Shown here piece by piece: positions 16,501 to 31,284 of a stretch of 31,284 bases of DNA (positions within the stretch are counted from its first letter, which is position 1; each line of letters starts with the position of its first letter). The notes under the pieces were generated by a model, which was not told the DNA's origin, did no database searches, and saw only the letters and a list, made by a program, of their open reading frames with translations. This DNA is from Phoronis pallida (Eukaryota; Phoronida; Phoronidae), in assembly GCA_028565715.1 (NCBI GenBank), contig JAOXYC010179801.1, forward strand, positions 1 to 31,284. Direction: 5' to 3'. The position numbers and the translations under genes were made by a program.

Positions 16501-19500
16501 AACTATCAAGGGCCTTTGCTTAAATTACTCATCCAAGGAGTTCATTATAAAATCACAATGAATATGAAACTGCAAACTCCCTTGTTGAAGTGTCAAGTTT
16601 GAAAACTCAAGTTTAACTATCGTTTTAAGCACCAGAGTGGAGTTTGAATGGCAATCAGCCTTTAAAATCACTTTGGATTGACCAACTGAAGTTAATATCA
16701 TTCGCAATTTAAAAAAAGTTTTCTCAAATTCACATTGCTTCTTTAAGAAAAAGAAAAAGGTTTGCTTAAGTTGTTATTTTTCATGTTGTGTTATTTGTGT
16801 TATTTAATTCAATCCCAGAACATTTTTAGATTATTATTAAAAACTATGAAATCAATGTAAGTTTGCTCAATGATTATTTGTGTAAAAAGCCCTATACATG
16901 TTAAATCCTTTCCCATGCTTATTGTATTTTGTGATTTTTTTTATATTTTAGTTTCAGGGATATTTTTCGTCACAACATTAGTGTTAATGCATTTTAAAAA
17001 TGGTAAAAGTATCTGACCATCATAGCAACCATTTTTAGACATAACAACCTTTTTTACACAAGTTCTCAGCAATGATTTTGTAAATTTTGGCTGCCTAATA
17101 AATTGTTGGCAGACTAAAGATGACACTGTATGATGTGTTCAATAAAAATAAGGGATGTCACCATGACTTAGTGGAGGAATAATATGGACTGACAAACTCA
17201 GGCTCTTTAATATTCTGCAATGACATACTCTTTCCCTGTTAAAGATGAATAAACCTTATTCATGAACATGAAAGTCATAAAAACAAGTTGTAGTGAAACT
17301 TGCTCTCAATGACAGTTAAAACTACATGCACCATACTTGAACATGCCATAATTTCTGACTCCACAAATTAATTTGAATTACGTTCCTCAATAACTTTTCG
17401 TGCCTTGAATAAGTATCAAGCCTACCAGAGTTTCCCTCTCGCGAGTTTTGAACCCATCTCACGAACCACCCATAATTGGTTTTTCCCTCTCACAAACCAC
17501 CAAAGCTCTGTACTGTACCGAAGCCCTTTGTTGTCTCTGGTGGTTTGTGGCAGGGAATTTCTTAGCGTGAGAGGGAATAATTGTTTGTGGCGCGGAATAT
17601 CGCGTTAGTGCGAGAGCTTTGGTGGTTCGTGAGAGGGAAAAACTAATTATGGGTGGTTCGTGAGATGGATTCAAAATTCGTGAGAGGGAATCTGTGGTAG
17701 GCTTGACTATGGATGTAATATTTCAAACTGAAATAAGCAATTACATGTTCAGAGAATTTTTTGGTTTAGGATACTAACTAGTCTTGTTTTATATCCACAG
17801 AACACCAATGCAGCTAATAAAGCGATGCAGAGTAAACTGGATTCTATCACGGAATGGCAGGACAAGACGAAGAAAACCATCAAAGAAATGCAAGCAAGCA
17901 TCACTCAGATTCCTGAAGATGTAGGTTTTGTGAAACCCCGAGTCATTTTCATTCCATTTTCTAAATTTAATATCTTTGTTGTACTATTAGTAACCTTTCA
18001 ACGTTCAAATTAAGCAACATTCATATGTTTATTTTCCAGAAAGCAATTTTCCAACCAAAAAACGTCCAAATGCATAAGACACCCGAAAATAATTTTATTT
18101 TACTTGAAATATTGATAGACAGAATTTGATATTTTAAAAATTATTTATTATTCTAGGATTTTTGCTTTGAATTTTATTTTAGATTTCAGCATTTATTAAT
18201 GAATGAAATATGATACAGTATCCAATTTTGCCACGGTAGAACACAACTTCTTGCTTTGATTGTTAATTTGTACTACGGTTGTGTTTCTAGATTTATGCCG
18301 TTGAGGAGAAGTTTGAAGTGACCAAGTCAGACATGAGTATCAAAGTCAGTGAAGAAAAGGAGGAAAGGTATGATTATTTTTATTTAAAGACCCATGTTCG
18401 CTCTCTAAGGTCTAAAAACACATTTTGGGTTTTTTGGTGGGTCAGGATTGCATTATTGATGTTATGACCTTTGAGTAGAGCCAAACAAATAAGAAATCCG
18501 TCGTGTTTTAGTGATTTAATGCCAAACCGCTGATTCCTTGTTTGGGGTGGTTGGCATTAAATCACAACTATATGAGGGATTTTCGAGATGTTTGTCTCAA
18601 CTCAAAGTTCATAACTTCGTGAAGCCATTTCTGACTCAATAGAACTCCCAAATTGTGTTTCTAAACCTTGGCACAGCCTGAAACCGGTTGTGTTACTTTA
18701 ATTTTTCATGGAGCATATCATTATTCATTTTCTTTTTAAAATGCAACAATGAATGCTAAACTGTTTGAAAGTTTTGACATTTGGTACCCTGAGACATATG
18801 TTTAATGTATTGGTTTATAATGTGATTTTATATTTCGTTTATTGCATTATTTTGAAAATCGTAAGTTTAATAAAGATATACATTGCCGTATAATGTTTGA
18901 TTTATCTAAAATTTGCTAGTGATGTTACTATAATACAAACCATTTTCAATTTGGTACATTTAATTTTTTCCTAGAATCTTAATTGAATTGTTTGGTATGT
19001 AATTGGATTTTTCACTTCAATTGCTCTCTCATTGTCTTCAGGGAGAAAGAGTTTGAGAATTTGAAGAAGGAGGTTTCTCGTCTGATTCACCAGGCCCAGG
19101 CCCAACAACCTATCAAGCCTGGGGGCAAGCCAGCCCCCGCTACAGTCGCTGATGTTGACAATGTAAGTCTCCCTGTAAAAGACCTTCTATAATTGATAAT
19201 AGGGAAAGTTACTGTTAACTTTCAAACTAACCTTGTTTTTTTTAAAGTGTCTGGGGTTCATACAGGTTGAAAAAACCCTTAGAACTTCAAATGCAGTCAA
19301 AAGTTTTCTACAAATTATGTAGTTAAGTTTTTGATTTTGAGAAACTTAGTTTAAAAATTGCCAATTTTGATAATGAAACGGGATTTTTGTCCAATTTTCT
19401 CAAAAACATCATCAACATAACTGTAAACAGCCCAGATTTGTATGGAAAATTTACAAAAAAATATTTGAATGGTTTAAAACAAATATAAACAATACACTCT

Positions 19501-22500
19501 GCATGGGGCCATCAAAAGTTCTGACAAAAATAAGGAAAAATTTTAACTTTTCAAAGGTTTGAATTTTTTGTTAAAGATAATGTCTCCTCGTGGTCATGAT
19601 CTGGCATCAAACTAGAAATTTTGTGTAAGAGTAAACTAGAAATTTTGTGTAAGAGTCCTTCAATGAACATAACTAACTTGCATCTTAGTAAAAAAATTCA
19701 AAAAAAATCTGTAAACAGGCTTTTGGGAGCTTTTTGTATCCAAATCTAACCCTCTCTTAAGACTAGGTTAGACTTTTTTAGGATGAAAAGCTCTCAAATC
19801 ACCCCTAACAGATTGTTTTGATTTTTTTTACTCAGATGCAGGTTAATTATATACATCAAGGGACCCATACACAAAATTTCTAGTTGATTTGAATTTTGAC
19901 CCCAGATCCTCACCAACGAGGAGACAGTATCTTTAAGATTTTTTTGACACTTTGTTCCGTAACAGGTATCGTAATTTCGCTCTTGATAGTTTTTTTATTA
20001 AAATATCTAGAATTATTTAGGAATTTGTTTAAGAATTTAATACACTATAAGATAGTTAAATTATTGACAAAAATTTATACAAATAAAAACTGAATTCTGC
20101 CAACTAACCCAGGATGCTGTCAAGGATCTTCAAATGAAACATCAACGAGATGTTGAGCAGGTTTGGAACTTGAGTGCAAGTCTTCTGCATTTTTGTGCAT
20201 GATATTGGAGTTTTAATATTTACGAGTGATTTGTGATATTTTCAATTATGTTGCACGAGAAGTGATTTTATGTAATCAAAACAATTTTCTTGCACAATGT
20301 AGACAATATTCAGTTTCCTCTCTTTTTAAACAATATTTTATTTAGATAATACAATTTCATTATTTTTTCAATTTATTTTTTTGTGCAATTTATCATTTGT
20401 TTTTTAAAAATTGCTTTTGTTTGCATCTTTTTCGTAAAATGCACTTTATCCAAGAATTAGTTGCTGCATGTTTGGTGTGGATTGCTTCAAATACCGTCTT
20501 AAAAATCTCAACATTTCCAAAAAAAACCCGAAATAATATAATTTACCATCTGTAACACTAGTCCGTAGCCATTCAGCGCTACTGTGGATTGTATATTCCT
20601 TTGCACATACCTAATGTTAGTGCGACATTTGTGAACATGGAAAAAATATAGTACAGTCTGCAACAATTAAAAATTATAAATCAACAGAAGATCAAAACTA
20701 TTGAGTTTCATTTGATAGCAACTTTATTTTACGATTCAAATCTTTGAAATGTCCACCGTACATTTAAAATTCAGAGCACATTATATTTTGACTTATGGTT
20801 TCAAATGCTCATCTTGCAAAATCTTAAGTATGAAGATAAACAAATTAAATTTGATGTCAATTCTTCAAGCACTTTCACATTTTCATATAAAGTTTTTAAA
20901 AAAGCTAGGTAAATCGTTATTTCTACTTAGATTCACAGTGCAGGTAACAAATGTGGATTTTTATTGAAATATCAATATTTAAACAGTGTATAAACTAGAC
21001 AGTTTTAGAAGCTTTTAAAATGTGCCTTCATGACCTTAAAAGGCCATGAAAGCACATTTTTTGTAGATTGTTTTCAGTCCATTTTACCAAGCTGACTGAG
21101 GGTAGAAAAGGAAGCCATCAATATTAATTTCACTTAATCTTCCATTCTAGGTGCATGCCAGTATTCGTAAGCTTGCTGAGTCCGTCCAAACAGTGAAGAC
21201 AGTTCTAGGAATGAAGATTCAGTCAGAATCTAAAGCAGTAAGTTTCTTAAATTTTCTTTTAAGTCTAAGTAAAATATGTTATACTGGGGTCTAGGTAGCC
21301 AAGTTGGTAGAGCACTGTCCAGCCAACAGGAGACCTTAGTTCAATTCTCAGTCAAGTTTTGAACCTTTCTGTCTTTTCAAATAAAATATGATTTGTCAGC
21401 TTTTTTCTCAAATATCTTTCCTTAACTTTTCTGACTTTCTCTTTTAACACATGGTTGTTTCTTTAATCTGTGTTAATTCTCATTTCAAGTAATACAATTT
21501 CATTTTTGACAACAAAATACACTCTCATTTTCTATTATTTTGGTTTCTTCAGCTCTTAGATGAATTACATTGTTTTCTTTGCTTTATTGATTTCCTAAAT
21601 ACTCTCATGTTCTTTTATGCATTACAACTCCTTCTCCAACTTAAACTCATTTTCTTATTTTCTCATAGCGAGATGCCGACATTCAAACCTTAAGTTCTCG
21701 CATTTCGGAGCTTCGCCTTTTTATAACACTTTCCGGTGTTCAAATTCCGTCCCCGGATTTAGGCCAATCCTGGAATCAGCCACATTTCCATTACTCCAGT
21801 TTGATGGACGAGAGACAGGAAAGCATCCCTGAAAGAATTCCAGAAAGTGTCCCAATAATAAAAGTTGAAAGCGACATTGACTACCGAGAACCTATATCGG
21901 AAGAACCCGAACCTGTTATAGAAGAAAACAAACTTCTGGTTGAGAAAAAAGAAGCTTTACTTAAAGATGAACGTAGACCACCAGTCGAGGATTTCAAGCT
22001 GGAAAAAAGTGAAACAGTGACTGTTCTTCACCACCCTGCTGAAGGTGAATTGAAAAATGTTCCTGGCCAAGGTGAAGAAAAAATTGCAGACGGGGATGTA
22101 GGGGAGACAATTCCAAGTGTAGATGACCAAGGGGAGACGAACCCTGAGAAGCAAGAGCAAGGTGGGGAAATTGGTAATGATGACAAAATAGGTGATGAAA
22201 ATATAAACACAAACAAAGTATCTGAGGTGGAAGAAATAGAAGATGAAACACAGGCTAGTGATGCTGATAAAAGCAAACAGGAGGTTGATGAGGATCAACT
22301 GAAGAATGGACTTCCTGAAGAGGGCGCTGAGAATGATGAAAAGAAAAATGACGACAGTTCAGAGGGACAAGAAGTGAATAAACAGCCTGATAATTTGAAT
22401 GAAAATAAGAACGGGAAAAACAGTGATGACATGAAAACTGAAGAGGAACAAAAACCAACAAGTGATCAAAACCAAGACAAAAAGGAACCAGATATGCACA

Positions 22501-25500
22501 ACTTGTAAAAGACACGTTTTTGTCATCGCAACAGTATGTCAAACGTTGATTTACAACTAACACAGTTTTTTTGTTCTAACCTTTCCCCTATCACAAATCT
22601 GCATTTTGGTGAAACTGTGCACATGTTTACCCTCATTAATAATGTTGATGCATTAATAGCACTAATATACAATCAACCTTATATACTTGTCATACACTAT
22701 GATTGAAGAATCATAGACACTAAATGTCCTACCGCAATTAGCACAAATGTGACAAAGAAGACATTCCATGTGTCCATGTCTACGAGAGACTCAACGTTTG
22801 TGTTACTGCAGCTTGAAGAGTGATTCTATGTGTCCCTTATTATATATAATAACATAGCCTTGCCCACAAATCGACCACATTTACATTGCATGAGGGACTG
22901 TTACCTCAATACACAAGTTAAAATTTCCCAGTAGAAGGAGAAAACCCTTAAAATTGTATGGTTTATTTAAAAAAATGCATTATGAGGGATTATGTCACTA
23001 ATTCTTGGGACAATATAACACTGACTTCAATTAGTAAAATGCTAGTATTCAGTTATGCTGTCTAGTGATGGACAATTGGAATCACTCCCATTTAAAACTA
23101 ATGCACTTTGCATTATGGACACATGAAATCACCTTTAAGGCTATAAACTTCAATTATTTGGTTGTGATCAATTTTTGTTTATTTTACTAACATTCATGTT
23201 GTTACCGTATTGTTTCTCATATGTATACATTTCTTTTAAAATTCTAGATAACTTTAAAATCTTTTGGTAGTATCATAAATATTTCACACTATAACAAAAT
23301 ATTAATTTGAATTTTTGAGTCTGAATTGATTTTATTTATTATTCAACCAAATAGTACAAATTGAGGATTATGTTCCTAATTATATTTACTTGAAATTTAC
23401 AGCGAGAAGATGGAATAGACAAACTATCCAAAGAAATAGAGGAATTAAGAATAGTTATCGAACCATTACTGAACACTAAACCACATCCAAAACTGTTTGT
23501 GAAAACAAAAGATGACTTGGACGACCCGGAAGAAGCAGAAAGCAAGGCTCTTGAGATTAATAAATGGAATGTAGCCAATGCTTACAGGTATTTTGACTTC
23601 TCATACTTTTAAAACATTTTGATTTTATTTGGATATTAAAGATGCATAAGCCAAAAAAGTCATAAAAATAATTTTTATTTAGAACTGCGTGCACCATACT
23701 TGGAATATCCCAAAATTTCTGGCTCCACAAATTATTTTGAATGCGTTCCGCAGTGACTTTTCTGGCCTTAAATAACTATGGTTGGCCCAACCATAGTTTT
23801 TTAGGCTAGAATAGTCATTGAGGAACGCATTCCAAATAATTTGTGGAGCCAGAAATTTTGTGATATTCCAAGTATGGTGCACGCAGTTCTAAATAGGCAA
23901 GTTTCACTTCAATTTATTTTTATTACTTTTATTGGTCACCAATACGGCTTATGCATCTTACAGATTAATTCATTTTCAGAAAATGATTTTTTGAAATCTT
24001 TCTCTTTTTTAAAATATTTACATGTTGTGAGCATGATTCTCTTTAATTTGACATTTTGTTGTTTTATATCCTGATTTTAAGTTGATCAACTTTTGTTTGT
24101 TGTGGTTTCTAGACTTTTGTTGAAGATAAATTTCAGTTTTGACATTGAATGCTGTTCATCTTCTTTTTATGCACCATTTTCAAGACATAAAATGTGATCA
24201 TCATCACTCTTAAATGTATCTTGTATATTTTTTATTTTCTATTTTATTTTCAAGTGTTGTTTATATTATTTTCTGAACTGTGTTGTGCTATTTTTCAGTT
24301 GGTTGTTCATGAAATCTAAATGGGACTACATTCGATGGAAAGCCTCCACAAAAAATCTCCAAGATCCAGAAAACAATAACAATAGACTTTCAGTTACCCC
24401 CGTCCCCCACCCCCTTGGGCGTGCTCCCACTCCATCAAAACTAGACCCCGAAATAAACCCAACCCCTGAACCTGGTGGTGGACCCCCTAAATCACCTCCC
24501 CCAAAAACGCCGCCACCCAAGTCTGCGGAAGCTCCCCCTAGTGATCAAGACAAAAATAACGATTCTAATAAACCAGGCCCATCCAGCAAACCACCGTCTG
24601 GTAATAAAACGCCATCTGGTGGCAACAAGAGTGCTGAGAAATCTAAACCAGAGTGGTGATTTTGATTTTTGTTCTTTCCTTGTTGAAATAATCATATTCC
24701 TATTTTTAAAATGCCCTGAAATGGTAGTACCGTAATTATGATAATAATATTTAAAGTAATTGAAATGATAATAAAAAACCAGTGGAAATAATACCAATAA
24801 TACACCAGGTGTTATGATCCTAATGACTTATTTTCTAGAAATTTTACAAATTAGATTCTAAACAATAAATTGTTTTGTCTTTTCAAAATTTTACTCTTTC
24901 GGCCAGTGAAAACATACATTCATTTGAATTATAAACAATATATATTTACTCAATCCGCAACAGTTGCATGAATCTATGATCTCTTGTTGTTTTCATAATT
25001 CTCAAAAGTGCCATCAATAACAATATAAGATGTCTATCCCTCTCAAAGTTTCCCAACCGTACTGATAAAATTCATAACAGTCTTAAAGTTCGCAAACACC
25101 ATATTTGTGCTACTGATCATACTATCGGAGACAGGTGATAAAACATATCAGTAGGACAACTTATCAATTAAATGATGGAGAAGCTATCTTGCTAATTATC
25201 CACTTTCTTATCTACTCACCTAAACATGGGCTTAACTTGGCTGCCACTCCAATCCACTGGATATTGGGGTTGGTGCTTACATGATTTCGGGGTGATATTT
25301 TCTGCATTTGGATCTTCTGTTTGACAAAATAAACGCCTTTGTCTTTAAATACAGAGGATTACTTTACTTGAATATGTCTCCAAAATTCAAGAATGCATGA
25401 TCCATTTTTGGAGTTTTCAATTCAATTTGGGAAAAGTGAGGCGGGATTATGTAAACTGCCCTGAAATGTAACTCTTTTTAAAGAGTACTGTTAGCTTCAA

Positions 25501-28500
25501 GTTGAATTTCCCATGTGTGCTTTGCAATTTGGGAGTAGCCTTGCTCGAACCTGGACCATAACGATGTGTTCAGTGAAAACAAACAATTCTTGTGAGTTTT
25601 CCCTATTTTTAGTTTTGTTAGTTTTCATTTTGGTATTGTTTACATGTTAGGTATTTAAGCTGAGCTAATTTTCTTGGCTAGACCTATTTTGTTCCAGGAA
25701 ATGTGTCTGTATTCGTTAGCCTAGTTTTTGGCAAGAAAAAACCCAACAAGTTAATGTTTTCTTGAATATTTTATGTTGGAGAATTTGCAGCATTTATAAA
25801 TTGTGCCATGCACTTGTTTACTTTGCAATTTTGTTCACTTTCCGTCCATTTTGACATACTTATTAAAACTTCCTTCCATTCTGGTGTATTTTCAAACATC
25901 TAAAAGATATTTTAGAGGTAAAATTCTTGTACATCATTACTTTATTTGTTTTTTATTATAATTTTTTGTTCTGTTTTGATATCAAAACTTCACAATCAAG
26001 TAAAGAGCAATAACTATTAGTTATATCTTTGTCTGCCTGACTTGAAAATGTCAATGTCATAAATAATTCGTTCCAAGCGAGTATTCAGACATGTTTAGGT
26101 GCTCCTTTATTGACTTTATCACAAACTTTTGAAAAGGACTAGCAAAATTTCTTTCATGAAGAAAACAATTAGAATGTTTTACAAACAGATTAAAAGTTGA
26201 AGAAAAACCGACAAAGGCACAGTTTCAATATTTCAAAATATAAATATTTTTATCAGGAATTCGTAAAAGAAAAAATAATGAATGTCACTTGAGTATTCAA
26301 AGATAATTTCAAGTGAATTTCTTTTATGAGTTCCTGATGAAAACTATTTATATTTTGAATTATTGAAACTCTGCTTTTATCCATTATCTGAGGATCAGCA
26401 CTTGAATCATCTTTAGTTTACAGATTTCTCCTTATATTTTACAAACAGACTGCTTCTTAATTTTAAATTTAATGTTTAGGACCTTTCATTTTAAAGGCAT
26501 TCTAGTTATTATTTGCATAATTTTATTTTATTTTAACATTTGATGTGAATATGTTTTAAACCTAAAGCTTCCATTCACTTTACACACAACATTCCTATTT
26601 TTTGAAAAATATTCTAGATTTTATTTTTTGTTCGACTTGATTTGAATGAATTATATTGTTGTCACCGTCTTTCTGTTTTATATACTGTGAATTCAATTGA
26701 TTCTTTGTTTTATCTTGTTGTATTCTTGATTTCATTTATCAAAAAATTTAAAGGCATACATCGCGATCGTTGTATACAAGTTTATCATTTCCCTTAGTCA
26801 GCCCATATTACCACCTAATTGTGCATCTTTTAAAATTGATTTCAAATTTATAGTAACTAGTCTGAAATTGCTGTTCACTCTTCAGACGGAGAAAAGATTT
26901 AATTTATTTCAAACAAATTGCAAAGTGCGATGTATGTCTTTAAATTTGTTTCTGCTAACTGTTGTTTTAAATTTGTTTCTGCTAACTGTTGTTTTTATCA
27001 TGTTTTTTCTTGTAAATTTACGTTGTAGTTCTCAATAAAAAAGGTTATTCTCACAACTCTTATAATTTTGTGTTGCGCTTTCAAAGAATCTTTTAACTGT
27101 AGAAATAGGTTCATTTGACTCGATCACTCACTTTTAAAATTGTGCAAAATCTTTCAATGTCCGTCCGCCATTTTTGTCAAGCACTGTAATGAGAATGAGG
27201 CTGGTCTTGTGTAGAGTTGGTGTACTGTTTTCTAAGAATGGAATCGTACACATGGTCCAATTGATATTGCCCGACGTCCCTGTTCATGCAATCATTTCCA
27301 TGCATTCTGATGCGTATACTTTCTTTAATCCAACCTTTGCTTCGATCAGTGTCTCTGTCTATGATTTTTGATTCACTCCAATTAATCACATGATTAGATG
27401 AAGTGGCATTTTACGAGGAGTCAGCAGAAATCATTTGAACACAGATTTTTCACAAGTCGGCAATAACTTATCATAATACCAAATGAACCTATTTCTACTA
27501 ATTATCTACCAGTCAGATGAACTTTTTCGCTCATCTTTATATTAAAAGTGTTGAAACATATATATGCTTTATGAGGTTCACAAAGACTTTGGATAAAGAA
27601 TTTTTTTTTAATCTGTAGAGTTTTTCTTCGGAAAATTAGATAAAATGTTTTATATGCGGTCCCATTTTTTTAAAAAACGCCTCTACAAATCTTTTTATTC
27701 ATTTTTAAAGTGCATTTAAAGCTCCACAATTTTGTTTACTTGTATAATCATTAATGATGTTTTTTTGGCCACAGTAGTAATTTACACCAAGTTTTTTTTA
27801 TATAAAACTCCTTTATTCTCAACGTTTCACAAACAAGGCTGCTTGCATTCTCAAGAGACACAGGTAAAACTCGGCATAGACTTGTTTTCCCGCCAATTTT
27901 AGTTGTCATTTATATTACCTGTGTCTCTTGAAAATGCAAACAGCTTTGTTTGTGAAACGTTGAGAATAAAGATGGATTTTTTTTATATAACCTTGGTATT
28001 AAACTTTTTAATGTTTCTTTATTTATTGAAATCAGTATTGTACAGTATAGCCCAGATTACTTGCAAATGCGCTTCACAAGTAAATGACACAAGTAGAATT
28101 AATGTATAATAAAAAGCTTGAAGCAGCACGGAAATATTAAATTAACATATCAAAATACGGGGGGAAATGTTCGACAAACGTATTTGTGGATTAGCTCATT
28201 TTCAGCGGCTATCCCGAATTGATGACGCTCAAATATTCAAAGGAATCTGTTGAGGGTTTTGAAATATTAAACTGCGAAATTCAGAACTTTTTTATGAACG
28301 CACGTTAGCATTTTTTGCAGTTTCTTTGTTTTATAAAAGATATAGAAGTCGTGATCCTATTAGTGATACTAAATTATAAAAATAAAATCAAAAACACTGG
28401 AATTCAGTAATATTTGAAGTTCTAACATATCTTTTTCGTGCTGTCGCGTACTGCTTGTTTTGTGTGTCAATTAAATGTAGATAAAATAGGTTAGAACCCA

Positions 28501-30632
28501 ATTTTATTTACATGTATTTTTTGTCGTATAATTTATTATAATTATTTGATTTTTTCATATACACTTCTCAAAAAAAGTATGGAATATTTTTCATTGGCTT
28601 CGTATTTTCACATTATTCAAGGATTAAAGAAAAGACGTTTGATAGTGTAGTCTTTTATTAAGCGATCAAATGCAAGTTGAATACTTAATTTCTGAGGAGA
28701 AATAATGTAACTAAGGACGTTTTAAAAGTCGCTGAAGAAAACATATGGCAATTTTGAAGTATTCATAAAACTTGGGAGTATTCAATTAAACGCCCTTACA
28801 TGTATTATTTTCATTTATGTAAATAAAAAGCTAAAATACTTCCTGAAAGAAAAATCATTTACTTATACGCTATATGTATTTTTGAGCAATTTTATTGAAT
28901 ATTATTTGAATGAGAACATTTTTAATACTTAGAGAGGTTCGCTGTATTTTAATTCAATACTGGATTTATAGCAATGTACATATGATGGCTCCTGATGATT
29001 CAAAACCTATCTAATTAAAAATATCGTAATTCAATTAATTTCCAATGAAATTACATCAAAATACCTTCATTTCGTTAGTAAGTAATAGTTCTTTTGAACA
29101 CAACACATTTGAGGTTTGTATTTTACAAAAATGAAAATACCGATAAGGGAATCTTGTCAAATATGCCGTGTCTATTGAGAAATATGTCTTTTTCTTCACC
29201 TCTCATCTTGAAACGTCATAGTTTCATGATTTATTTTAAGAAATTGCCTTCATTTTCTTTCTAAAAGACCAAATTTTAACAATCGGCATTTTTCTTTCTT
29301 TCAATCATGAAATGTGAAAATACTACTCCGATGAAAAAAATATTTTCATGATAATATATTTATAACTTTTTTTGAGTAGTGTATAATAAAAATCTAATTA
29401 GTCACACTTCTCCGTTTTGTAAAATATACAAAACGAAAACCATGTTTTCGGAAATTAAAAGTTCCGACACTGAAATACAAACGTACTTGAGGGTGATTAT
29501 TAGTTTCTAACAGTCTGTGATCACCTGGCTTAAGCGGGATTCAAAACCAAAGGTTAGGCCGGTTCAGTGAGCTTTTGGAAATTCAGTATAAGTTTTTTTT
29601 AATATTCATAAGTAGAAAGCCCCTTTTTTGTTTCTCAAATCTAAATGAGTCATTTAGAGTCTCGGAGTCTTGATTTTTGATGGTCTGTAAAATGCGAACC
29701 AATTCTTTTCCTATCAAAACACAATAACGGGTCATTATTTTAAATTTCGAAAAATTTGAACAAATCGCCCTTCAGGTTCAGAGAGTTTTTAAAAGACTAG
29801 ATTCAACATAAAATTCACTTGATCACATTGTTACTCGCCCTCATAAGTGAAAATATAAACTTTCACAGTTCAAAAATGTCGTAGAAGTATAGTTGCCAAT
29901 TCATGGATGTTATTAAGCCTTCCACGTAGTATAACATAAACTTCATTATTGAAAGTTTACCTTACATGGAAATCCATTTTTTAACTATAAACGCTATGTT
30001 GTATCAAAATACATATTTTCAACATCATTTTTATTTGTAACTTACTGAATTCCTGAAATTATACATTTTTAATATATTTTTTTCCAATTTCTAGATGGCT
30101 ACGGTGGAAACGCAATCTTGTGAAAGATCTGCCGGGAAGAGAGGATGATGCCACTGAAACTGCGACTCAAGATGATGATGATGATGATAATGATGAAGAC
30201 GATGAAGATGATGATGAAGACGAAGATGAAGAAACTCCTGTTCCACCTAAGAAACTTCCAGTAAAGAAACAACCGGTAGAAGATGACGAAGATGATGACG
30301 AGGATGATGATGAGGATGACGAAGATCCGCCACCCAAGAAACCGCCACCTAAAAAGCCAATTGATGACGATGATGATGATGATGATGACGATGAAAATGA
30401 TACTCCACCGCCGAAGAAACCTCCTAAAAAGCCTGTTGATGACGACGATGATGATGACGATGATGACGACGATGAAGATGACGATCCTCCCCCGAAGAAG
30501 AAACCACCTCCTAAGAAACCGCCCGTTGATGACGATGATGATGATGACGACGATGACGATGATGAAGATGATCCACCACCAAAAAAGAAACCACCACCAA
30601 AGAAACCAGTCGATGATGACGACGACGACGAC

Positions 30633-30664
<32 letters not shown>

Positions 30665-30779
30665 CGATCCGCCTCCTAAAAAACCACCTCCTAAAAAACC
30701 ACCTGTTGATGACGATGACGATGATGACGACGACGACGATGATGACGATCCACCTCCCAAGAAACCAACAAAACGATAA
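1518..30779 (+). CDS. Multi-exon coiled-coil protein gene with three alternative C-terminal ends (whole-gene entry)
   Basis: Twenty coding exons, plus alternative ends, join in one frame. The summed shared exons (1-19) give 2541 nt, exactly 847 codons, with phase continuity at every junction. The predicted protein is hydrophilic and rich in Glu, Lys, Gln and Leu with heptad spacing, so a long coiled-coil rod is expected. There is no signal peptide or clear membrane segment. Linkers that break the coil lie near residues 550-570 (Lys/Ser), 630-650 (Thr/Pro/Lys) and 780-800 (Pro/Gly). The three possible tails are acidic Glu/Lys-rich (A), Pro-rich (B1) and poly-Asp with Pro/Lys spacers (B2). A structural or scaffold role is inferred from shape only. 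The conserved-looking stretch before the B tails (WNVANAYR followed by WLRWK) and the rod recall CCDC154-type proteins, but I cannot confirm this. The exon structure is well supported by ORFs and splice sites. Expression and isoform use are inferred. Confidence 0.85.
1562..3082 (+). other. Intron 1
   Basis: This is a 1.5-kb AT-rich intron with donor GTAAGT and acceptor TTCTTCTTTTGACAG. I see no exon or clear transposon in it. The minus-strand ORFs at 2264-2446 and 2465-2698 show no coding character and are treated as chance. Confidence 0.65.
3083..3547 (+). CDS. Exon 2: N-terminal Pro/Gly-rich head and first coiled coil
   Basis: It encodes residues about 15-170. A short head rich in Pro, Gly and Ser (PQFPSKFNTLPGIGG) is followed by a long heptad-rich helix that starts near LDAEERIRQLETRI and runs to SRRDLQAA. 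The ORF is open across the whole 465 nt. The acceptor has a good pyrimidine tract and the donor is CCAA|GTAAGA. It ends in phase 2. It is the longest exon of the rod and the strongest single piece of coding evidence. Confidence 0.9.
3581..3760. mobile_element. MITE-like fold-back element, family 1 copy a
   Basis: The left end TACCGTACACACCTGGGTAA is matched in inverted order by the right end with CCAGGGTGTGTAGGGTAA, giving about 25-bp imperfect terminal inverted repeats. It has the same ends and internal GGCATTCCCA motif as the element at 6836-7000. It begins 34 bp after exon 2. It has no coding capacity, and the ORFs crossing it are chance. Confidence 0.7.
4200..4319. mobile_element. MITE-like fold-back element, family 2 copy a
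   Basis: GATTATGAAT...TGTTCCAGCAACCAT on the left is answered by ATGGTTGCTGGAACACATTC and ATAATCA on the right. The loop region contains TGATCACAT and GTCACGTGATGTGA. The element is about 120 bp. Its AGCAACCAT and GATCACAT motifs also appear in the element at about 10180-10345. Confidence 0.7.
4366..4665. mobile_element. 300-bp inverted-repeat element with 67-bp perfect arms
   Basis: The left arm 4366-4432 and right arm 4599-4665 are exact reverse complements over 67 bp by eye. The unpaired centre is about 166 bp. The flanks share a TTAAGTT-like string (left TTAAGTTG, right TTAAGTTA) that may be a target-site duplication. Perfect arms suggest recent insertion. No ORF lies inside. Confidence 0.8.
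4880..5072 (+). CDS. Exon 3: coiled-coil rod
   Basis: It encodes residues about 170-234, from LEELRSELDNTSRAKDQLE to KKFEDDNRQQ, with regular Leu/Val/Met spacing of a coiled coil. It enters in phase 2 (AA+A gives Lys) and leaves in phase 0 at CAACAG|GTAACT. The reading frame is open throughout. Confidence 0.9.
5160..5772. mobile_element. Outer fold-back element interrupted by a second element
   Basis: TACGGTATT...GCCATTTTGGGACA at the left end is answered by TGTCCCAAAATGGC...AATACCGTA at the right end. The two ends enclose an independent inverted-repeat element at 5211-5581. This is a nested pair: the outer one was hit by the inner one. Confidence 0.65.
5211..5581. mobile_element. MITE-like element, family 3 (AAGCGCCCC-rich ends)
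   Basis: Ends TACCATATTCTCCCTAATAA and TTATTAGGGAGAATACGGTA are inverted copies, followed inward by AAGCGCCCC runs that are unusually GC-rich for this window. Similar TACCGTATT...AAGCGCCCC repeats are common in marine invertebrate genomes. A degenerate relative lies at 14338-14594. The ORF at 5412-5732 runs through its edge and is not a gene. Confidence 0.75.
6836..7000. mobile_element. MITE-like fold-back element, family 1 copy b
   Basis: The left end with CACACCCTGGTATAAGCCCA is answered on the right by TGGGCTTATACCCGGGTGTG. The internal GGGAATGCC motif matches copy a at 3581-3760 in the opposite orientation. It is about 165 bp. Confidence 0.75.
7072..7154 (+). CDS. Exon 4: coiled-coil rod, Gln/Thr-rich
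   Basis: It encodes about 27 residues, LDQMRKQNETHSQTEQ to GQIES, with a Gln/Thr-rich surface. The acceptor is TTTTGATTCACAG and the donor AGCAG|GTATGG. It enters phase 0 and leaves phase 2. It is too short to stand as an independent ORF but is fixed by phase with its neighbours. Confidence 0.85.
7155..7398 (+). other. Intron 4
   Basis: A short 244-bp intron, the smallest in the gene, with donor GTATGG and acceptor TTTTTTTCTTCAG. The ORF at 7212-7412 crosses it and is not coding. Confidence 0.8.
7399..7494 (+). CDS. Exon 5: coiled-coil rod
   Basis: It encodes LSELRDVVVDLRNKQDSETQ and on to MLEQQLQV. The heptad pattern is clear. It enters in phase 2 (AG+A gives Arg) and leaves in phase 2 at GTGAA|GTATGT. 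The acceptor is strong. Confidence 0.88.
7842..8067 (+). CDS. Exon 6: coiled-coil rod
   Basis: It encodes about 75 residues, from MNDLSSAINEQSRRREEAM through ERVRLQAKISEIAEDV to HSKFSQLER. The composition is strongly Glu/Arg/Lys-rich and helical. It enters in phase 2 (AA+A gives Lys), with acceptor TATTTTACAG. It leaves in phase 0 at GAAAGG|GTATGG. Confidence 0.9.
8068..9554 (+). other. Intron 6
   Basis: This 1.5-kb AT-rich intron has donor GTATGG and acceptor GCTTACATCAG. I see no clear repeat or exon. ORFs at 8302-8490 (minus) and 9104-9355 (plus) look like chance open frames in AT-rich DNA. Confidence 0.7.
9555..9683 (+). CDS. Exon 7: coiled-coil rod
   Basis: It encodes 43 residues, QMHAEQQARIDHEKETRESF to DDDVQQVRELQK. 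It is symmetrical (phase 0 in and out, 129 nt). The donor is CAAAAG|GTTAGT. A second GT donor-like site (CAACAG|GTTCGA at 9664/9665) lies inside in phase 0 and would shorten the exon by 6 codons if used. Confidence 0.88.
10180..10345. mobile_element. MITE-like fold-back element, family 2 copy b (diverged)
   Basis: GGTCAGGCAT...ATGATCACATCGCTAGTTACC on the left pairs imperfectly with GGTCACTAGTCATGTGATCAT and GGTTGCC on the right. It shares the GCAACCAT and GATCACAT blocks with 4200-4319, which suggests the same family. Confidence 0.6.
10399..10566. mobile_element. MITE-like fold-back element next to the exon 8 acceptor
   Basis: CCAATGGGGCTAGTTGACCA and GTGTATTATGTG on the left pair with CACATAATACAATAG and TTGCCAACTAGACCCATTG on the right. 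It ends only about 19 bp before the exon 8 acceptor AG, so the branch-point region of intron 7 probably lies in or beside the element. Confidence 0.7.
10586..10710 (+). CDS. Exon 8: coiled-coil rod
   Basis: It encodes LDRRKTNDTLSKLDESLSIL and on to DKIITAEIKS. It enters phase 0 and leaves phase 2 at TCCAG|GTTTGT. The frame is open and the heptad pattern regular. Confidence 0.88.
10711..11335 (+). other. Intron 8
   Basis: This 625-bp intron has acceptor TTACCTTCAATTCAG. A short direct repeat (TTGAAAAACATGA, about 11178 and 11212) is the only notable structure. Confidence 0.75.
11336..11462 (+). CDS. Exon 9: coiled-coil rod, Ala/Gln/Met-rich
   Basis: It encodes KHHEKASMDRIADVQEKLSM to MQMQKQGEK. 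It enters in phase 2 (AG+G gives Arg) and leaves in phase 0 at GAAAAG|GTAGTA. It has more Ala, Met and Gly (QQAVGGTVMQMQ) than the other rod exons. Confidence 0.9.
11463..11877 (+). other. Intron 9
   Basis: This 415-bp intron ends in the strong acceptor TCATGTTTTTTAG. No repeat or exon was recognised. Confidence 0.75.
11878..11952 (+). CDS. Exon 10: coiled-coil rod, short
   Basis: It encodes 25 residues, FERDIEDIRQNGGRSSINEI then LLEEK. It has phase 0 on both sides (75 nt). The donor AAA|GTATTT is weak, so this exon may be alternatively spliced. Its phase agrees with exons 9 and 11. Confidence 0.75.
11953..12538 (+). other. Intron 10
   Basis: This 586-bp intron lies between two weak splice sites (donor GTATTT, acceptor AAATTTAAATTAG with little pyrimidine tract). 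It contains a 66-nt exon-like segment at 12090-12155. Confidence 0.65.
12090..12155 (+). other. Candidate cassette exon encoding a hydrophobic segment
   Basis: It is framed by an acceptor TTATTATTTCTAG and a donor ATTCAG|GTGTAAG, is 66 nt long, and is open in phase 0, the phase of intron 10. It would add 22 residues that are hydrophobic and Cys-containing (PCTLAFCVALFVVH then CSSISFIQ), quite unlike the charged rod. It may simply be a chance pair of splice-like sites. Confidence 0.25.
12539..12604 (+). CDS. Exon 11: coiled-coil rod, 22 residues
   Basis: It encodes VEEVANEKISRLEDDVKKLQ then AK, a textbook heptad stretch. It is symmetrical phase 0, 66 nt, with donor GCAAAA|GTAATT. The acceptor lacks a strong pyrimidine tract. 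Confidence 0.82.
12605..13005 (+). other. Intron 11 with dispersed repeat
   Basis: This 401-bp intron has acceptor GTTCCAAAATTTTAG. The stretch 12775-12860 is a (TAA)n microsatellite followed by a dispersed repeat (see the separate entry). Confidence 0.75.
12775..12860 (+). repeat. TAA microsatellite and TATATAGCGC-type dispersed repeat
   Basis: ATAATAATAATAATA is followed by TTCTTATATAGCGCTTTCC and then CTCAAAGGGCTTTGCAATAC. This order (short trinucleotide run, TATATAGCGC, CAAAG-GCTTT) is a widespread dispersed repeat type in invertebrate genomes. Family assignment is from memory of the pattern. Confidence 0.5.
13006..13089 (+). CDS. Exon 12: end of a coil and Lys/Ser-rich linker
   Basis: It encodes 28 residues: VQTMLKHWKKDSEAGTSKRK followed by GASPRIPE. 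The basic SKRKGASPR segment breaks the coil and could be a linker, a nuclear-import-like patch or a phosphorylation region (inference). It is symmetrical phase 0, with donor CTGAA|GTAATC. Confidence 0.82.
13090..13733 (+). other. Intron 12
   Basis: A 644-bp AT-rich intron ending at ACCAAATTTTCAG. Nothing else was recognised in it. Confidence 0.75.
13734..13967 (+). CDS. Exon 13: coiled coil ending in a Thr/Pro/Lys linker (3' limit uncertain)
   Basis: It encodes DSERMDEAMVAIERLQSDLE through LEAIEELRISIADLKKR and then a non-helical SMTTPRKESPAVDNVKK. The frame stays open to a TGA at 13980-13982. The next exon needs phase 0, and no good GT donor exists in that phase. The best match is AAG|GCAATA at 13967/13968 (a GC-AG intron). 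A weak GT alternative is AAT|GTGAAA at 13958/13959. If neither is used, the exon would read through to the TGA and give a short truncated form. Confidence 0.8.
13968..14767 (+). other. Intron 13
   Basis: This 0.8-kb intron has a GC or weak GT donor and the strong acceptor TTTCTTCTTTTTTTAG. It contains a decayed family 3 fold-back element at 14338-14594. The minus-strand ORF at 14185-14385 is not considered coding. Confidence 0.65.
14338..14594. mobile_element. Degenerate MITE-like element, family 3 relative
   Basis: The left TACTGTAATCTCCCTAATAA and right CTAATTAGAGAGAATTTGGT are diverged copies of the 5211-5581 ends (TAxxxTATTCTCCCTAATAA type). The length is about 257 bp. More mismatches than in the 5211 copy suggest an older insertion. 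Confidence 0.55.
14768..14908 (+). CDS. Exon 14: coiled-coil rod
   Basis: It encodes 47 residues, LKTEVKGMIDESLQAQGEEM through LRKLKDLSEKVNEVEEQLKA to KMAN. Heptads are very regular. It is symmetrical phase 0, with donor GCAAAT|GTAGGT. Confidence 0.9.
15207..15232. repeat. Short palindrome
   Basis: CCCTGTAC, a spacer and GTACAGTACAGGG form a compact hairpin-capable inverted repeat of about 26 bp inside intron 14. No function can be assigned. Confidence 0.5.
15894..16065 (+). pseudogene. Orphan exon-like ORF, possibly a relic exon or gene fragment
   Basis: An open frame reads SLTHNMVSTFLSLVDSDAKG and then LVCPETQILLSGFNQMASVL to the donor-like ACAG|GTACAA at 16065/16066. The mixed hydrophobic/polar composition looks like a folded domain, not the coiled-coil rod and not random AT-rich sequence. 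Its best acceptor (GTAACAG) has no pyrimidine tract. The phases (0 in, 1 out) do not fit the host gene. Another frame just upstream (ending near 15900) is also open, which may indicate a frameshift at the CACACACA run. I do not recognise the family. It could be a relic exon, a fragment of a transposed gene, or chance. Confidence 0.35.
17242..17415. mobile_element. Left half of a 23639-type element, cut by another element
   Basis: AAGATGAATAAACC at 17242 matches the AAGATGCATAAGCC end of the 23639-23959 element. AAAGTCATAAAAA, GCACCATACTTG, CACAAATTA and CCTTGAATAA follow in the same order as in that copy. The match stops at 17415, where the next fold-back element starts, and the right half is not visible downstream of 17706. 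Confidence 0.6.
17416..17706. mobile_element. Long fold-back element with about 95-bp arms
   Basis: The left arm begins TCAAGCCTACCAGAGTTTCC and the right arm ends TCTGTGGTAGGCTTGA. Arms pair imperfectly over about 95 bp. Both carry repeated TTCGTGAGAGGGAA / TTCCCTCTC(G/A)CGA motifs and the ACCACCCATAATT block. It inserted into the half element at 17242-17415. ORFs on both strands here (17405-17608, 17459-17674) are products of the palindrome. Confidence 0.75.
17772..17778 (+). other. Perfect branch-point consensus TACTAAC
   Basis: TACTAAC stands 22 nt before the AG of the exon 15 acceptor (AG at 17799-17800), the position expected for a lariat branch point. It supports the exon 15 boundary. 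Confidence 0.6.
17801..17920 (+). CDS. Exon 15: coiled-coil rod
   Basis: It encodes 40 residues, NTNAANKAMQSKLDSITEWQ to KTIKEMQASITQIPED. It is symmetrical phase 0, 120 nt. The donor GAAGAT|GTAGGT resembles the exon 14 donor. Confidence 0.9.
17921..18290 (+). other. Intron 15
   Basis: A 370-bp intron ending at GTTGTGTTTCTAG. Nothing else was noted. Confidence 0.75.
18291..18367 (+). CDS. Exon 16: coiled-coil rod
   Basis: It encodes IYAVEEKFEVTKSDMSIKVS then EEKEE. It enters phase 0 and leaves phase 2 at GGAAAG|GTATGA. It is short (77 nt) and is fixed by phase to exons 15 and 17. Confidence 0.85.
18368..19041 (+). other. Intron 16
   Basis: This 674-bp intron has donor GTATGA and acceptor CTCATTGTCTTCAG. 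The fold-back element at 18405-18672 fills about 40 percent of it. Confidence 0.75.
18405..18672. mobile_element. Imperfect fold-back element, about 125-bp arms
   Basis: AAGGTCTAAAAACACATTTT...GTGATTTAATGCCAA on the left is answered by TTGGCATTAAATCAC...AAATTGTGTTTCTAAACCTTGG on the right. Arms are long but diverged, so the insertion looks old. It starts about 37 bp after exon 16. Confidence 0.7.
19042..19162 (+). CDS. Exon 17: last long heptads and a Pro/Gly linker
   Basis: It encodes EKEFENLKKEVSRLIHQAQA followed by a non-helical QQPIKPGGKPAPATVADVDN. The linker separates the main rod from the short C-terminal coil. It enters in phase 2 (AG+G gives Arg) and leaves phase 0 at the consensus donor AAT|GTAAGT. 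Confidence 0.9.
19163..20112 (+). other. Intron 17
   Basis: This 950-bp intron has the consensus donor GTAAGT and acceptor CAACTAACCCAG, with a CTAAC branch-point match close to the AG. It holds the fold-back element at 19571-19938. The ORF at 19896-20093 is not coding. Confidence 0.75.
19571..19938. mobile_element. Fold-back element with an internal direct duplication
   Basis: TTAAAGATAATGTCTCCTCG on the left pairs with CGAGGAGACAGTATCTTTAA on the right. Arms of about 150 bp continue through ACTAGAAATTTTGTGTA, TTGCATCTTAGTAAAAAAA and GGGAGCTTTT. The left arm carries a tandem copy of AAACTAGAAATTTTGTGTAA (about 19609-19656) that the right arm lacks. Confidence 0.7.
20113..20160 (+). CDS. Exon 18: 16-residue coil
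   Basis: It encodes DAVKDLQMKHQRDVEQ. It is a symmetrical 48-nt exon (phase 0) with acceptor CTAACCCAG and donor GAGCAG|GTTTGG. It could be skipped without changing the frame. Confidence 0.8.
20161..21150 (+). other. Intron 18
   Basis: A 990-bp AT-rich intron with a hairpin at 21017-21060 and acceptor CTTCCATTCTAG. The ORF at 20749-20967 is judged chance. Confidence 0.75.
21017..21060. repeat. Hairpin, about 20-bp arms
   Basis: AAAATGTGCCTTCATGACCT and GGCCATGAAAGCACATTTT form a near-perfect stem with a very small loop, about 90 bp before exon 19. It may be the core of a small fold-back element. Confidence 0.55.
21151..21237 (+). CDS. Exon 19: last shared exon, short coil
   Basis: It encodes VHASIRKLAESVQTVKTVLG then MKIQSESKA. 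It is symmetrical phase 0, with donor AAAGCA|GTAAGT. It is the branching point of the transcript: both the acceptor at 21668 and that at 23402 follow it in phase 0. Confidence 0.9.
21284..21362 (+). repeat. tRNA-derived SINE-like sequence
   Basis: TAGCCAAGTTGGTAGAGCAC (A-box and D-arm-like) and TTAGTTCAATTCTCAGTC (B-box-like) lie about 30-35 nt apart, as in tRNA-derived SINE heads. The cloverleaf is incomplete. It begins about 46 nt downstream of the exon 19 donor. Confidence 0.55.
21669..22508 (+). CDS. Exon 20A: alternative terminal exon, acidic Glu/Lys-rich tail (isoform A)
   Basis: The acceptor TTTTCTCATAG joins exon 19 in phase 0. The first residues RDADIQTLSSRISELR continue the coil. 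A short hydrophobic/Pro segment follows (LFITLSGVQIPSPDLGQSW). A long low-complexity tail rich in Glu, Asp, Lys, Asn and Gln then runs to a TAA at 22506-22508, giving 279 residues. The tail includes IIKVESD, which fits the psi-K-x-E form of SUMO sites (inference). It is likely disordered. No canonical AATAAA was seen in the 890 bp that follow. Variants such as CATAAA near 23274 are possible. Antisense ORFs over this exon are shadows of its codon bias. Confidence 0.85.
   Translation, partial: RDADIQTLSSRISELRLFITLSGVQIPSPDLGQSWNQPHFHYSSLMDERQESIPERIPESVPIIKVESDIDYREPISEEPEPVIEENKLLVEKKEALLKDERRPPVEDFKLEKSETVTVLHHPAEGELKNVPGQGEEKIADGDVGETIPSVDDQGETNPEKQEQGGEIGNDDKIGDENINTNKVSEVEEIEDETQASDADKSKQEVDEDQLKNGLPEEGAENDEKKNDDSSEGQEVNKQPDNLNENKNGKNSDDMKTEEEQKPTSDQNQDKKEPDMHNL
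22509..23402 (+). other. 3' UTR of isoform A, or intron for isoforms B
   Basis: AT-rich sequence with no further coding signal. It serves as 3' UTR after the TAA at 22508 and as part of the intron when exon 20B is used (acceptor TACTTGAAATTTACAG). Confidence 0.6.
23403..23587 (+). CDS. Exon 20B: alternative to 20A, coil and conserved-looking C-terminal segment (isoforms B)
   Basis: It encodes REDGIDKLSKEIEELRIVIE, then PLLNTKPHPKLFVKTKDDLD, DPEEAESKALEINKW and NVANAY. The first 16 residues resemble the start of exon 20A at half of the positions, so the two may be duplicated alternatives. It enters phase 0 and leaves phase 2 at TTACAG|GTATTT. The codon use and complex composition make it the most domain-like part of the C-terminus. 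Confidence 0.88.
23588..24298 (+). other. Intron 20B
   Basis: This 711-bp intron has donor GTATTT and acceptor GTGCTATTTTTCAG. It contains the fold-back element at 23639-23959 just after the donor. ORFs at 23679-23882 and 23841-24074 lie in or near the palindrome and are not genes. Confidence 0.75.
23639..23959. mobile_element. 321-bp fold-back element with long near-perfect arms
   Basis: Terminal AAGATGCATAAGCC at 23639 is matched by GGCTTATGCATCTT ending at 23959. Inside, GAACTGCGTGCACCATACTT...CTATGGTTGG pairs with CCAACCATAG...AAGTATGGTGCACGCAGTTC over about 100 bp per arm. A related half copy is at 17242-17415. Confidence 0.8.
24299..24659 (+). CDS. Exon 21B1: alternative terminal exon, Pro-rich tail (isoform B1)
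   Basis: It joins exon 20B in phase 2 (AG+T gives Ser) and encodes WLFMKSKWDYIRWKASTKNL, then a disordered tail rich in Pro, Lys, Asn, Ser and Gly (GGGPPKSPPPKTPPPKSAEA, NKPGPSSKPPSGNKTPSGG) ending KPEW and TGA at 24657-24659. The PPKxPPPK motifs could bind SH3/WW-type domains (inference). Its start shares a WL...RWK pattern with exon 21B2. The minus-strand ORFs here are shadows. Confidence 0.85.
24770..24775 (+). terminator. Polyadenylation signal AATAAA (isoform B1)
   Basis: AATAAA lies 111 nt after the B1 stop. A second copy at 24864-24869 is followed by a T/G-rich run (TTGTTTTGTCTTTTC), so cleavage after about 24885 is also likely. Confidence 0.55.
26208..26382. mobile_element. AT-rich fold-back element
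   Basis: CACAGTTTCAATATTTCAAA...TTTTTATCAGGAATTCGTAA pairs with TTTATGAGTTCCTGATGAAA...TTTGAATTATTGAAACTCTG. Arms are about 60 bp with a few mismatches. Confidence 0.7.
26939..26995 (+). repeat. Tandem duplication, 27-bp unit
   Basis: The unit TTTAAATTTGTTTCTGCTAA plus CTGTTGT occurs twice in a row with no mismatch seen, consistent with a recent duplication. Confidence 0.8.
27784..27998. mobile_element. Fold-back element with conserved arms
   Basis: CTTTATTCTCAACGTTTCAC and the following AAACAAGGCTGCTTGCATTC...GAGACACAGGTAA pair with TTACCTGTGTCTCTTGAAAA...TTTGTTTGTGAAACGTTGAG. Arms are about 70 bp with few mismatches, and poly-T/TATATAA ends extend the pairing to ACCAAG at both sides. Confidence 0.75.
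28560..29383. mobile_element. Non-autonomous Tc1/mariner-like DNA transposon (putative)
   Basis: TACACTTCTCAAAAAAAGTA at the left is answered by AACTTTTTTTGAGTAGTGTA at the right, and TA flanks both ends (28558-28559 and 29384-29385), as expected for a TA target duplication. The element is about 824 bp and shows no transposase frame, so it would need help in trans. The assignment rests on TIR and TA only. Confidence 0.6.
30095..30779 (+). CDS. Exon 21B2: alternative terminal exon, poly-Asp blocks with Pro/Lys spacers (isoform B2)
   Basis: It joins exon 20B in phase 2 (AG+A gives Arg) and encodes WLRWKRNLVKDLPGREDDAT, then seven acidic blocks (runs of Asp with some Glu, up to about 19 Asp in a row) separated by spacers of the form PPPKKPPPKKP. 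It ends KKPTKR and TAA at 30777-30779. Block plus spacer is about 25-35 residues. Asp codons alternate GAT and GAC instead of forming a pure trinucleotide run, which argues for selection on the protein or for an old repeat. The tail must be disordered and strongly charged. Ca2+ or basic-surface binding is an inference. ORFs on the minus strand and in another plus frame across it are artefacts of the repeat. Confidence 0.85.
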
Positions 30780-30789
30780 AAGTAACATG

Positions 30790-30795
30790 GTAAGT
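30790..30795 (+). other. Consensus splice donor 11 nt after the B2 stop
   Basis: ACATG|GTAAGT matches the donor consensus. It could start a 3' UTR intron leading to an exon outside the window, or be unused. Confidence 0.35.
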
Positions 30796-31284
30796 ATAGC
30801 TCCTGCAAGTGTCTATTTTATGATGCAAAATCCATTGACACAAAAGATCACGTGTTCTTTCGTTGGAGGCATCAATTTTCCGTTATTTCACTTTGGTTTG
30901 GCAAGTTTTACTTAAAACTGCAAATGTGGTAAAATCCAAAACAATAAACTAGCTTTTTTAAAACCTGATATCAAAGAACGTGAAAAAAATCCAAAGCATA
31001 ATAAAAAAAATACCAATAGGCCCTACAATAATGAAAACCACATAACCGACAGTGACTAAATTGAAACAGTTATGAGCAGAAATACTGTTCATTGATTGAA
31101 ACAAATAAAACCACTCGCTGAAAAAGAAACAAAAATTATCAATGTTTTAACGAGTTGACAACGTTTTTCTGACCTTAAGGTCACATTTCGTGTAAACTTT
31201 GCTTGTAATATGGACTAGAGGCTTGTTATAAATTGTTTTAATAATTCGTGATGACACACAAACTTTAGATAAGACAACTGGTCG
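30796..31284. other. 3' flank or 3' UTR of the gene
   Basis: AT-rich sequence, partly 3' UTR to about 30970. No further exon, repeat or RNA gene was recognised up to the window edge. Confidence 0.5.
30943..30948 (+). terminator. Possible polyadenylation signal AATAAA (isoform B2)
   Basis: AATAAA lies 164 nt after the B2 stop. It would be used only if the donor at 30790 is not. Confidence 0.45.

What the first reader, a model, noticed from the sequence alone, without database searches (positions are those of the whole stretch)
21151..30779. One rod, three chemically different tails by alternative terminal exons
After exon 19 the gene can end in a Glu/Lys-rich tail (20A), or take exon 20B and end in a Pro-rich tail (21B1) or a poly-Asp/Pro-Lys tail (21B2). 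All four junctions keep the frame by phase (0 for 19 to 20A or 20B, 2 for 20B to 21B1 or 21B2). A scaffold whose coiled coil is constant and whose disordered charged tail is swapped would be a neat way to change partners or location.
Basis: partly seen in the sequence, partly recalled or inferred. Interest (0 to 1): 0.75.

Follow-up and report, generated by a model that had tools for sequence, protein, structure and literature searches.

The report
Splice switch swaps CCDC154's tail
This animal gene belongs to the coiled-coil family CCDC154 and carries three in-frame candidate last exons, so alternative splicing would likely exchange a conserved, predicted helix for a predicted disordered acidic tail, and annotated proteins of a brachiopod and several molluscs part at the same place.

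Summary
The four junctions are real as sequence: GT/AG, in frame, at the stated coordinates. The gene is CCDC154 (Pfam PF15450; 82 relatives found). Mytilus and Magallana proteins also part at 20B|21B, and a Magallana prediction strings A, 20B, 21B1, 21B2 in the window's order.

The interpretation needs correcting: B tails are not only charged disorder. 20B and 21B together encode a conserved aromatic/basic segment, NKWxVYxAYRWLxWK; its 20B half is in 48 of 95 proteins held, from amphioxus to molluscs. AlphaFold2 predicts a separate helix there in a bryozoan B form and disorder in a mussel A form. So the choice after exon 19 would add or omit that helix. 20A and 20B start alike, suggesting exon duplication, clear only in this window.

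No RNA data for this species were available, 20A lacks a canonical poly(A) signal, and partner or location switching is inferred. Closest known kind: C-terminal exon choice in tropomyosin.

The parts
1518..21237 (+). Common part, 19 exons: 1518-1561, 3083-3547, 4880-5072, 7072-7154, 7399-7494, 7842-8067, 9555-9683, 10586-10710, 11336-11462, 11878-11952, 12539-12604, 13006-13089, 13734-13958, 14768-14908, 17801-17920, 18291-18367, 19042-19162, 20113-20160, 21151-21237
   Evidence: GT/AG ends and one open frame; matches CCDC154. Exon 10 has weak sites (acceptor 19th, donor 64th percentile).
21151..21237 (+). Exon 19, last common exon, phase-0 donor GCA|gtaagt
   Evidence: isoforms of other animals part just after it.
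21669..22508 (+). Exon 20A: about 19 more rod-like residues, then an acidic tail with stop
   Evidence: no AATAAA or ATTAAA before exon 20B.
23403..23587 (+). Exon 20B: rod end, linker with FVK, first half of the aromatic segment (INKWNVANAY), phase-2 donor
24299..24659 (+). Exon 21B1: SWLFMKSKWDYIRWK, then a Pro-rich tail ending in Trp, stop
   Evidence: matches the bryozoan and mollusc exon.
24770..24775 (+). AATAAA, candidate poly(A) signal of 21B1
30095..30779 (+). Exon 21B2: RWLRWKRNLVKDLPG, then Asp blocks alternating with PPPKK blocks, stop
   Evidence: 87-90 nt tandem repeat.
30943..30948 (+). AATAAA, candidate poly(A) signal of 21B2

Best explanation
This is a CCDC154-family gene whose common exons can be joined in frame to three different ends, a choice that likely switches the protein between a predicted disordered acidic tail (20A) and a conserved aromatic/basic segment, predicted to be helical, that is completed in two ways (20B plus 21B1 or 21B2). 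Shown by sequence: junctions, phases, stops, the conserved segment, and the same parting points in annotated proteins of other animals. Inferred: splicing to 20A competes with skipping to 20B at the exon 19 donor, and 21B1 competes with 21B2 at the 20B donor; the 21B exons need 20B because only 20B restores their frame. Inferred: 20A and 20B arose by exon duplication, since both begin with about 19 similar residues that extend the last rod helix. Inferred and untested: the helix docks the rod on a partner or structure, and the A form, lacking it, is a different pool of the scaffold.
For: In-frame GT/AG chain with all four junctions. CCDC154 Pfam match, 78.2 bits against a cut-off of 28, and 82 relatives. 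At 20B|21B, Mytilus edulis and Magallana pairs part right after NAY, and three M. trossulus forms differ there. Exon order A, 20B, 21B1, 21B2 in P0088 and A, 20B in P0027. Segment conservation in 21 chosen sequences; its 20B half in 48 of 95 proteins held. AlphaFold2: separate helix 672-706 in Bugula's B form, pLDDT under 50 for 727-892 in a mussel A form. 20A/20B first 19 residues: 9 identical, score 38, reached by 0 of 821 rod windows against either exon.
Against: No RNA evidence from this species. Most isoforms elsewhere are automated models; in Batillaria and Magallana the A member is a read-through prediction. No canonical poly(A) hexamer follows 20A. The window's 20A is no nearer to other A exons than to B exons (mean 22.4 against 23.7), so A orthology rests on position. 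In seven other genera the 20A/20B likeness is weaker: 0 to 2.7% of rod windows score as well; and one rod stretch scores 37 against the window's 20B. 21B2 matches Lingula's B tail poorly in its first 16 residues (score 7). The segment is absent from 47 of 95 proteins, among them pulmonate snail B forms and the hemichordate, sea urchin, crinoid, sea cucumber, annelid and anemone proteins held. The models rest on 22 and 14 sequences and have pTM 0.23 and 0.21.
Confidence: 0.68

Rival explanations
1. Alternative last exons are used, but the tails act only as disordered spacers of different charge and length; no specific partner is exchanged.
For: 20A, the rest of 21B1 and 21B2 are low-complexity and charged or Pro-rich; distal tails differ in composition between oysters (Arg/Ser-rich) and Lingula or the window (acidic, Pro-Lys).
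Against: The aromatic segment across 20B|21B is conserved over great distances, which a mere spacer would not need.
Confidence: 0.2
2. Only one route is used in this animal: 20A, or one of the 21B exons, is a relic or belongs to another transcript.
For: No RNA data; no canonical poly(A) signal after 20A before 20B; weak 20B acceptor (66th percentile).
Against: Open frames of 279 and 228 codons beyond chance, frame-keeping junctions, matches of 21B1 to other animals, and annotated use of both routes elsewhere.
Confidence: 0.12
3. 21B2 is not the last exon: an intron in its 3' untranslated part starts right after the stop, so the transcript ends outside the window. The protein would be the same.
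For: ATG|gtaagt follows the stop by 10 nt (exon end 30789) and ranks at the 99.6th percentile of 1,617 GT sites by the home-made score.
Against: AATAAA at 30943 would serve an unspliced 3' end.
Confidence: 0.35
4. 20A and 20B are not duplicates: two unrelated exons both continue the heptad pattern and look alike by convergence.
For: Weak likeness in other genera, and one rod stretch scores 37 against 20B by chance or constraint.
Against: 0 of 821 rod windows reach the 20A/20B score in the window; both start with an R codon in the same phase.
Confidence: 0.35

Closest known systems
CCDC154 (Pfam PF15450); a mouse mutant has osteopetrosis and hearing loss (PMC7889813, passages seen)
   Same: The rod matches the family above its cut-off, and full-length relatives are named CCDC154-like.
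   Different: The Pfam profile ends near exons 19/20 (position 528 of 530 falls at residue 717 of P0042), so the tails lie outside the family definition. Vertebrate members were not retrieved.
Tropomyosin, whose isoforms differ by alternative exons including the C-terminal one (PMC10512467, abstract and outline; PMC3807590 and others, listing only)
   Same: A coiled-coil rod whose binding properties change with exon choice.
   Different: No tropomyosin Pfam match. Here the swapped part lies beyond the rod: a predicted helix or a long disordered tail, with two successive choices.
Neurofilament heavy, paramyosin, golgin or SRRM2, the names given to relatives by annotation
   Same: Coiled coil plus repetitive charged tail.
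   Different: No intermediate-filament or myosin-tail Pfam match at E 0.1.

Membership tests
CCDC154 (PF15450) | Profile match above the curated cut-off | tested here: met
   78.2 bits against 28, residues 185-546 of the 931-residue query. The close relative P0011 itself scores 27.4, just under.
CCDC154 (PF15450) | Similarity over the whole rod to named members | tested here: met
   Lingula 46% identity over 96% of the query; Bugula protein named CCDC154 57% over 40%; tree of 24 rods.
CCDC154 (PF15450) | Role in bone and hearing as in the mouse mutant | not testable with these tools
   Phenotype known from PMC7889813 only.
Alternative last exons (splice class) | Two or more 3' exons, each in frame from the same donor and each with a stop | tested here: met
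Alternative last exons (splice class) | A poly(A) signal after each last exon | tested here: not met
   AATAAA after 21B1 and 21B2; neither AATAAA nor ATTAAA after 20A before exon 20B, only weaker variants such as AGTAAA at 23033.
Alternative last exons (splice class) | Transcripts of each form in this species | not testable with these tools
   No RNA data held for this genome.
Tropomyosin | Tropomyosin Pfam match | tested here: not met
   Not among the 4 families listed at E 0.1.
Intermediate filament / neurofilament, paramyosin | Filament or myosin-tail Pfam match | tested here: not met
   Not among the 4 families listed at E 0.1.

The most novel reading that the evidence does not exclude
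CCDC154 carries an ancient two-step splice code at its C-terminus, already present in the ancestor of brachiopods and molluscs: exon duplication made a switch that adds or removes an aromatic docking helix completed across a splice junction, and each form ends in its own signature (hydrophobic for A, Trp for B1, acidic and Pro-Lys repeats for B2), giving three scaffolds with different partners from one rod.
Probability: 0.38. Interest if true: 0.68.

Novelty: new variant of a known kind. Interest (0 to 1): 0.52.

Why it matters
CCDC154 is a conserved animal protein whose function is hardly known, linked to bone and hearing in mice. A conserved splice switch would mark the C-terminus as the part that evolution regulates and names the residues to test, the NKW..AYRWL.WK segment. 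It may also explain why automatic annotation calls relatives neurofilament, paramyosin, golgin or serine/arginine matrix protein: long repetitive tails, not the shared rod, seem to drive the name.

Tried and rejected
Membrane-binding amphipathic helix: hydrophobic moments of the 28-residue segment are not clearly above shuffles in any of 13 sequences (z -1.5 to 1.1; window B1 -0.95, B2 0.95; best 18-residue stretch z up to 1.6, Octopus), so it is not claimed. Poly-Asp biomineral protein: set aside because the protein starts MEGRLRIGDNHG with no evident signal peptide (by eye, no predictor run) and nemertean relatives have acidic tails too. Further 21B-like exons in 23590-31200: of 19 acceptor-linked frames matching a loose pattern, only 24299 and 30095 start with the W-containing motif. 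Homology of 21B1 with 21B2: not supported by ungapped comparison (score -5, 3,844 of 20,000 shuffles as good) and weak with gaps (411 of 5,000). Likeness of 21B2 to nemertean tails beyond the RWLxWK start: not supported (positions 7-16: 8,391 and 4,455 of 20,000 shuffles). Solved structures: no hit for the first 369 residues; a family profile gave 7 weak hits, E 0.007-0.098, taken as chance. Fold search was not used, since the models are mostly long helices. Papers: CCDC154 alone 40, 20 listed; with cilia 5; alternative splicing 2; mollusc 0; isoform and exon 4, 3 listed; 'domain-containing protein 154' 1. No listed title or abstract start treats CCDC154 tails or isoforms; the unlisted ones were not seen. 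Alternative last exon with tandem exon duplication: 0. Pairs set aside: Nucella (419 of 676 residues matched, probably two genes) and Patiria (parts in the same region, exon class unclear). Rows lacking the exon-19 anchor were not classified. Species lists were hand-picked, about one protein per genus, from the 95 held.

Full report
Observation. I rebuilt the gene from the sequence and checked it by script. Nineteen exons from 1518 to 21237 join with GT/AG ends in one open frame. From the phase-0 end of exon 19 the frame continues into 20A (21669-22508, stop) or 20B (23403-23587, leaving phase 2), and from 20B into 21B1 (24299-24659, stop) or 21B2 (30095-30779, stop). The predicted proteins have 1,123, 1,025 and 1,133 residues. 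The coordinates in the finding are exact. Joining 19 directly to 21B would shift the frame, so the second choice is open only after 20B. By length alone, 20A and 21B2 exceed chance (longest open frame 151 codons in 300 resamples), while 21B1 (120 codons) does not.

What the gene is. Pfam gives CCDC154, PF15450, 78.2 bits against a cut-off of 28. A protein search, which scored only the 7,990 candidates sharing most words, found 82 relatives: Lingula (46% identity over 96% of the query), nemerteans, molluscs, a bryozoan, annelids, echinoderms, hemichordates, amphioxus, a sea anemone and weaker ones. A tree of 24 rods puts the window with the bryozoan Bugula (99/97), then with Lingula (86/81, below the program's strong mark), so the animal is probably a lophophorate or near kin (inferred). 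In the 11.7 Mb held of its genome, the Bugula protein matches only this contig (8 matches).

The tail choice is seen in other animals. In eight genera two annotated proteins with near-identical rods part at one place. In Lingula, Ostrea, Mytilus trossulus, Mercenaria, Littorina, Batillaria and Magallana they share the exon-19 sequence plus one R and then differ; in Biomphalaria they part one residue earlier. In the window both 20A and 20B start with an R codon, so this is the 19|20 junction. At the second junction, Mytilus edulis and Magallana pairs share everything up to NAY and then differ, and three M. trossulus forms differ there: the place of the window's split codon. Lingula shows only the first parting point in the proteins held. 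The Magallana read-through (P0088) lists an A tail, part of 20B, 21B1 and 21B2 in that order, and the Batillaria one lists A then 20B: the window's exon order. Six proteins come from contigs of 2.4-3.4 kb that are at most about 1 kb longer than their frames; if those genes have introns, as here, they are spliced transcripts (inferred). All six carry a 20B-type sequence; one (P0024) ends before the segment. The other isoforms are mostly automated models, so they support the switch but do not count molecules.

What the tails are. 20A continues the rod for about 19 residues and is then acidic. AlphaFold2 on a mussel A form ends the rod helix at 725, 18 residues into the A exon, and gives pLDDT below 50 from 727 to 892. 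The B route differs: 20B ends the rod, adds a linker with F[VI]K, and begins a segment that 21B completes. Over 21 hand-picked sequences, window included, it reads [VI]N[KR]WxVYxAYRWLxWK, with N in 21, the first W in 18, the second Y in 19 and the W at the start of 21B in 20. The 20B half is in 48 of the 95 proteins held. It is missing in A forms and also in pulmonate B forms and in the hemichordate, sea urchin, crinoid, sea cucumber, annelid and anemone proteins held. On Bugula's B form AlphaFold2 gives a rod helix to 642 and a separate helix 672-706 across the junction, with ten-residue means of 71, 86, 79 and then 54. These are models of relatives from 22 and 14 sequences, so the helix is a prediction. 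The window's 21B1 aligns without gaps to the bryozoan and mollusc exon (score 47 with Bugula, 1 of 20,000 shuffles as good), and 21B2 to Liolophura and Patella (0 of 20,000 each), though beyond RWLxWK its likeness is modest (118 and 109 of 20,000) and with Lingula it is poor (score 7). The distal acidic and Pro-Lys repeat has a counterpart in Lingula, which ends PPPRKPPAKRR where the window ends PPPKKPTKR. Oysters have an Arg/Ser-rich tail there.

Origin. The first 19 residues of 20A and 20B share 9 identities, with a score that no rod window reaches against either exon (0 of 821 each), which fits tandem exon duplication. Cautions: one rod stretch scores 37 against 20B, just under the 38 observed, and in seven other genera 0 to 2.7% of rod windows score as well as the pair. 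The window's 20A is no nearer to other A exons than to B exons, so calling it their orthologue rests on position and isoform logic.

How it likely works. Splicing from exon 19 to the near exon 20A, with cleavage there, competes with skipping to 20B; from 20B the near 21B1 competes with 21B2, 6.5 kb away. By a home-made score 20A has a better acceptor than 20B (95th against 66th percentile), but no AATAAA or ATTAAA follows 20A before 20B, while both 21B exons have AATAAA. Use of 20A could thus depend on a weak poly(A) site, a common way to regulate such a choice (general knowledge, untested here). The product either lacks or carries the aromatic segment. I think it most likely that the segment docks the rod and that the A form is a different pool of the scaffold. 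A membrane role is not supported: the segment is not clearly amphipathic in any of 13 sequences. C-termini also differ by form. A ends in V, I, L or F in 12 of 15 rows, two others ending in W; B1 ends in W in the window and five other genera but not in four. This hints at C-terminal ligands but is small and phylogenetically uneven.

Known and new. Exon choice that changes a coiled-coil rod's binding is known in tropomyosin (PMC10512467, abstract and outline; others by listing). CCDC154 is known mainly from a mouse bone and hearing mutant (PMC7889813, passages). My searches listed nothing on its tails or isoforms; the library lacks most subscription papers. I rate it a new variant of a known kind.

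Noticed in passing
15445-15468: Candidate 24-nt microexon (SADDIEVD, phase 0, AG and GT ends, donor at the 98.5th percentile) between rod exons 14 and 15; Haliotis isoforms carry a 14-residue insert in the same stretch.
   Followed up: partly
23676-23895: Inverted repeat with 97-nt arms, 93% complementary, in the intron between 20B and 21B1. Similar copies lie at 41 places (82 strand-wise matches) in the 11.7 Mb held, like a short mobile element without genes.
   Followed up: partly
30787-30795: Strong donor-like ATG|gtaagt 10 nt after the 21B2 stop, 99.6th percentile of GT sites: a possible intron in the 3' untranslated part.
   Followed up: partly
22509-23402: No AATAAA or ATTAAA between the 20A stop and exon 20B; nearest variants include ACTAAA at 22719 and AGTAAA at 23033.
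   Followed up: partly
4366-4665; 17416-17706; 18407-18669; 19634-19885; 27811-27971: Further long inverted repeats in introns, one with 67-nt arms that are 100% complementary.
   Followed up: no
P0002 against P0001 (Lingula): An annotated form lacks 99 residues of the rod, so the rod itself may vary by splicing.
   Followed up: no
P0058 and P0064 (Patiria): Two sea star forms with near-identical rods differ at the C-terminus; one carries NRYSIYSAYWW, the other does not, so a similar switch may reach echinoderms.
   Followed up: partly
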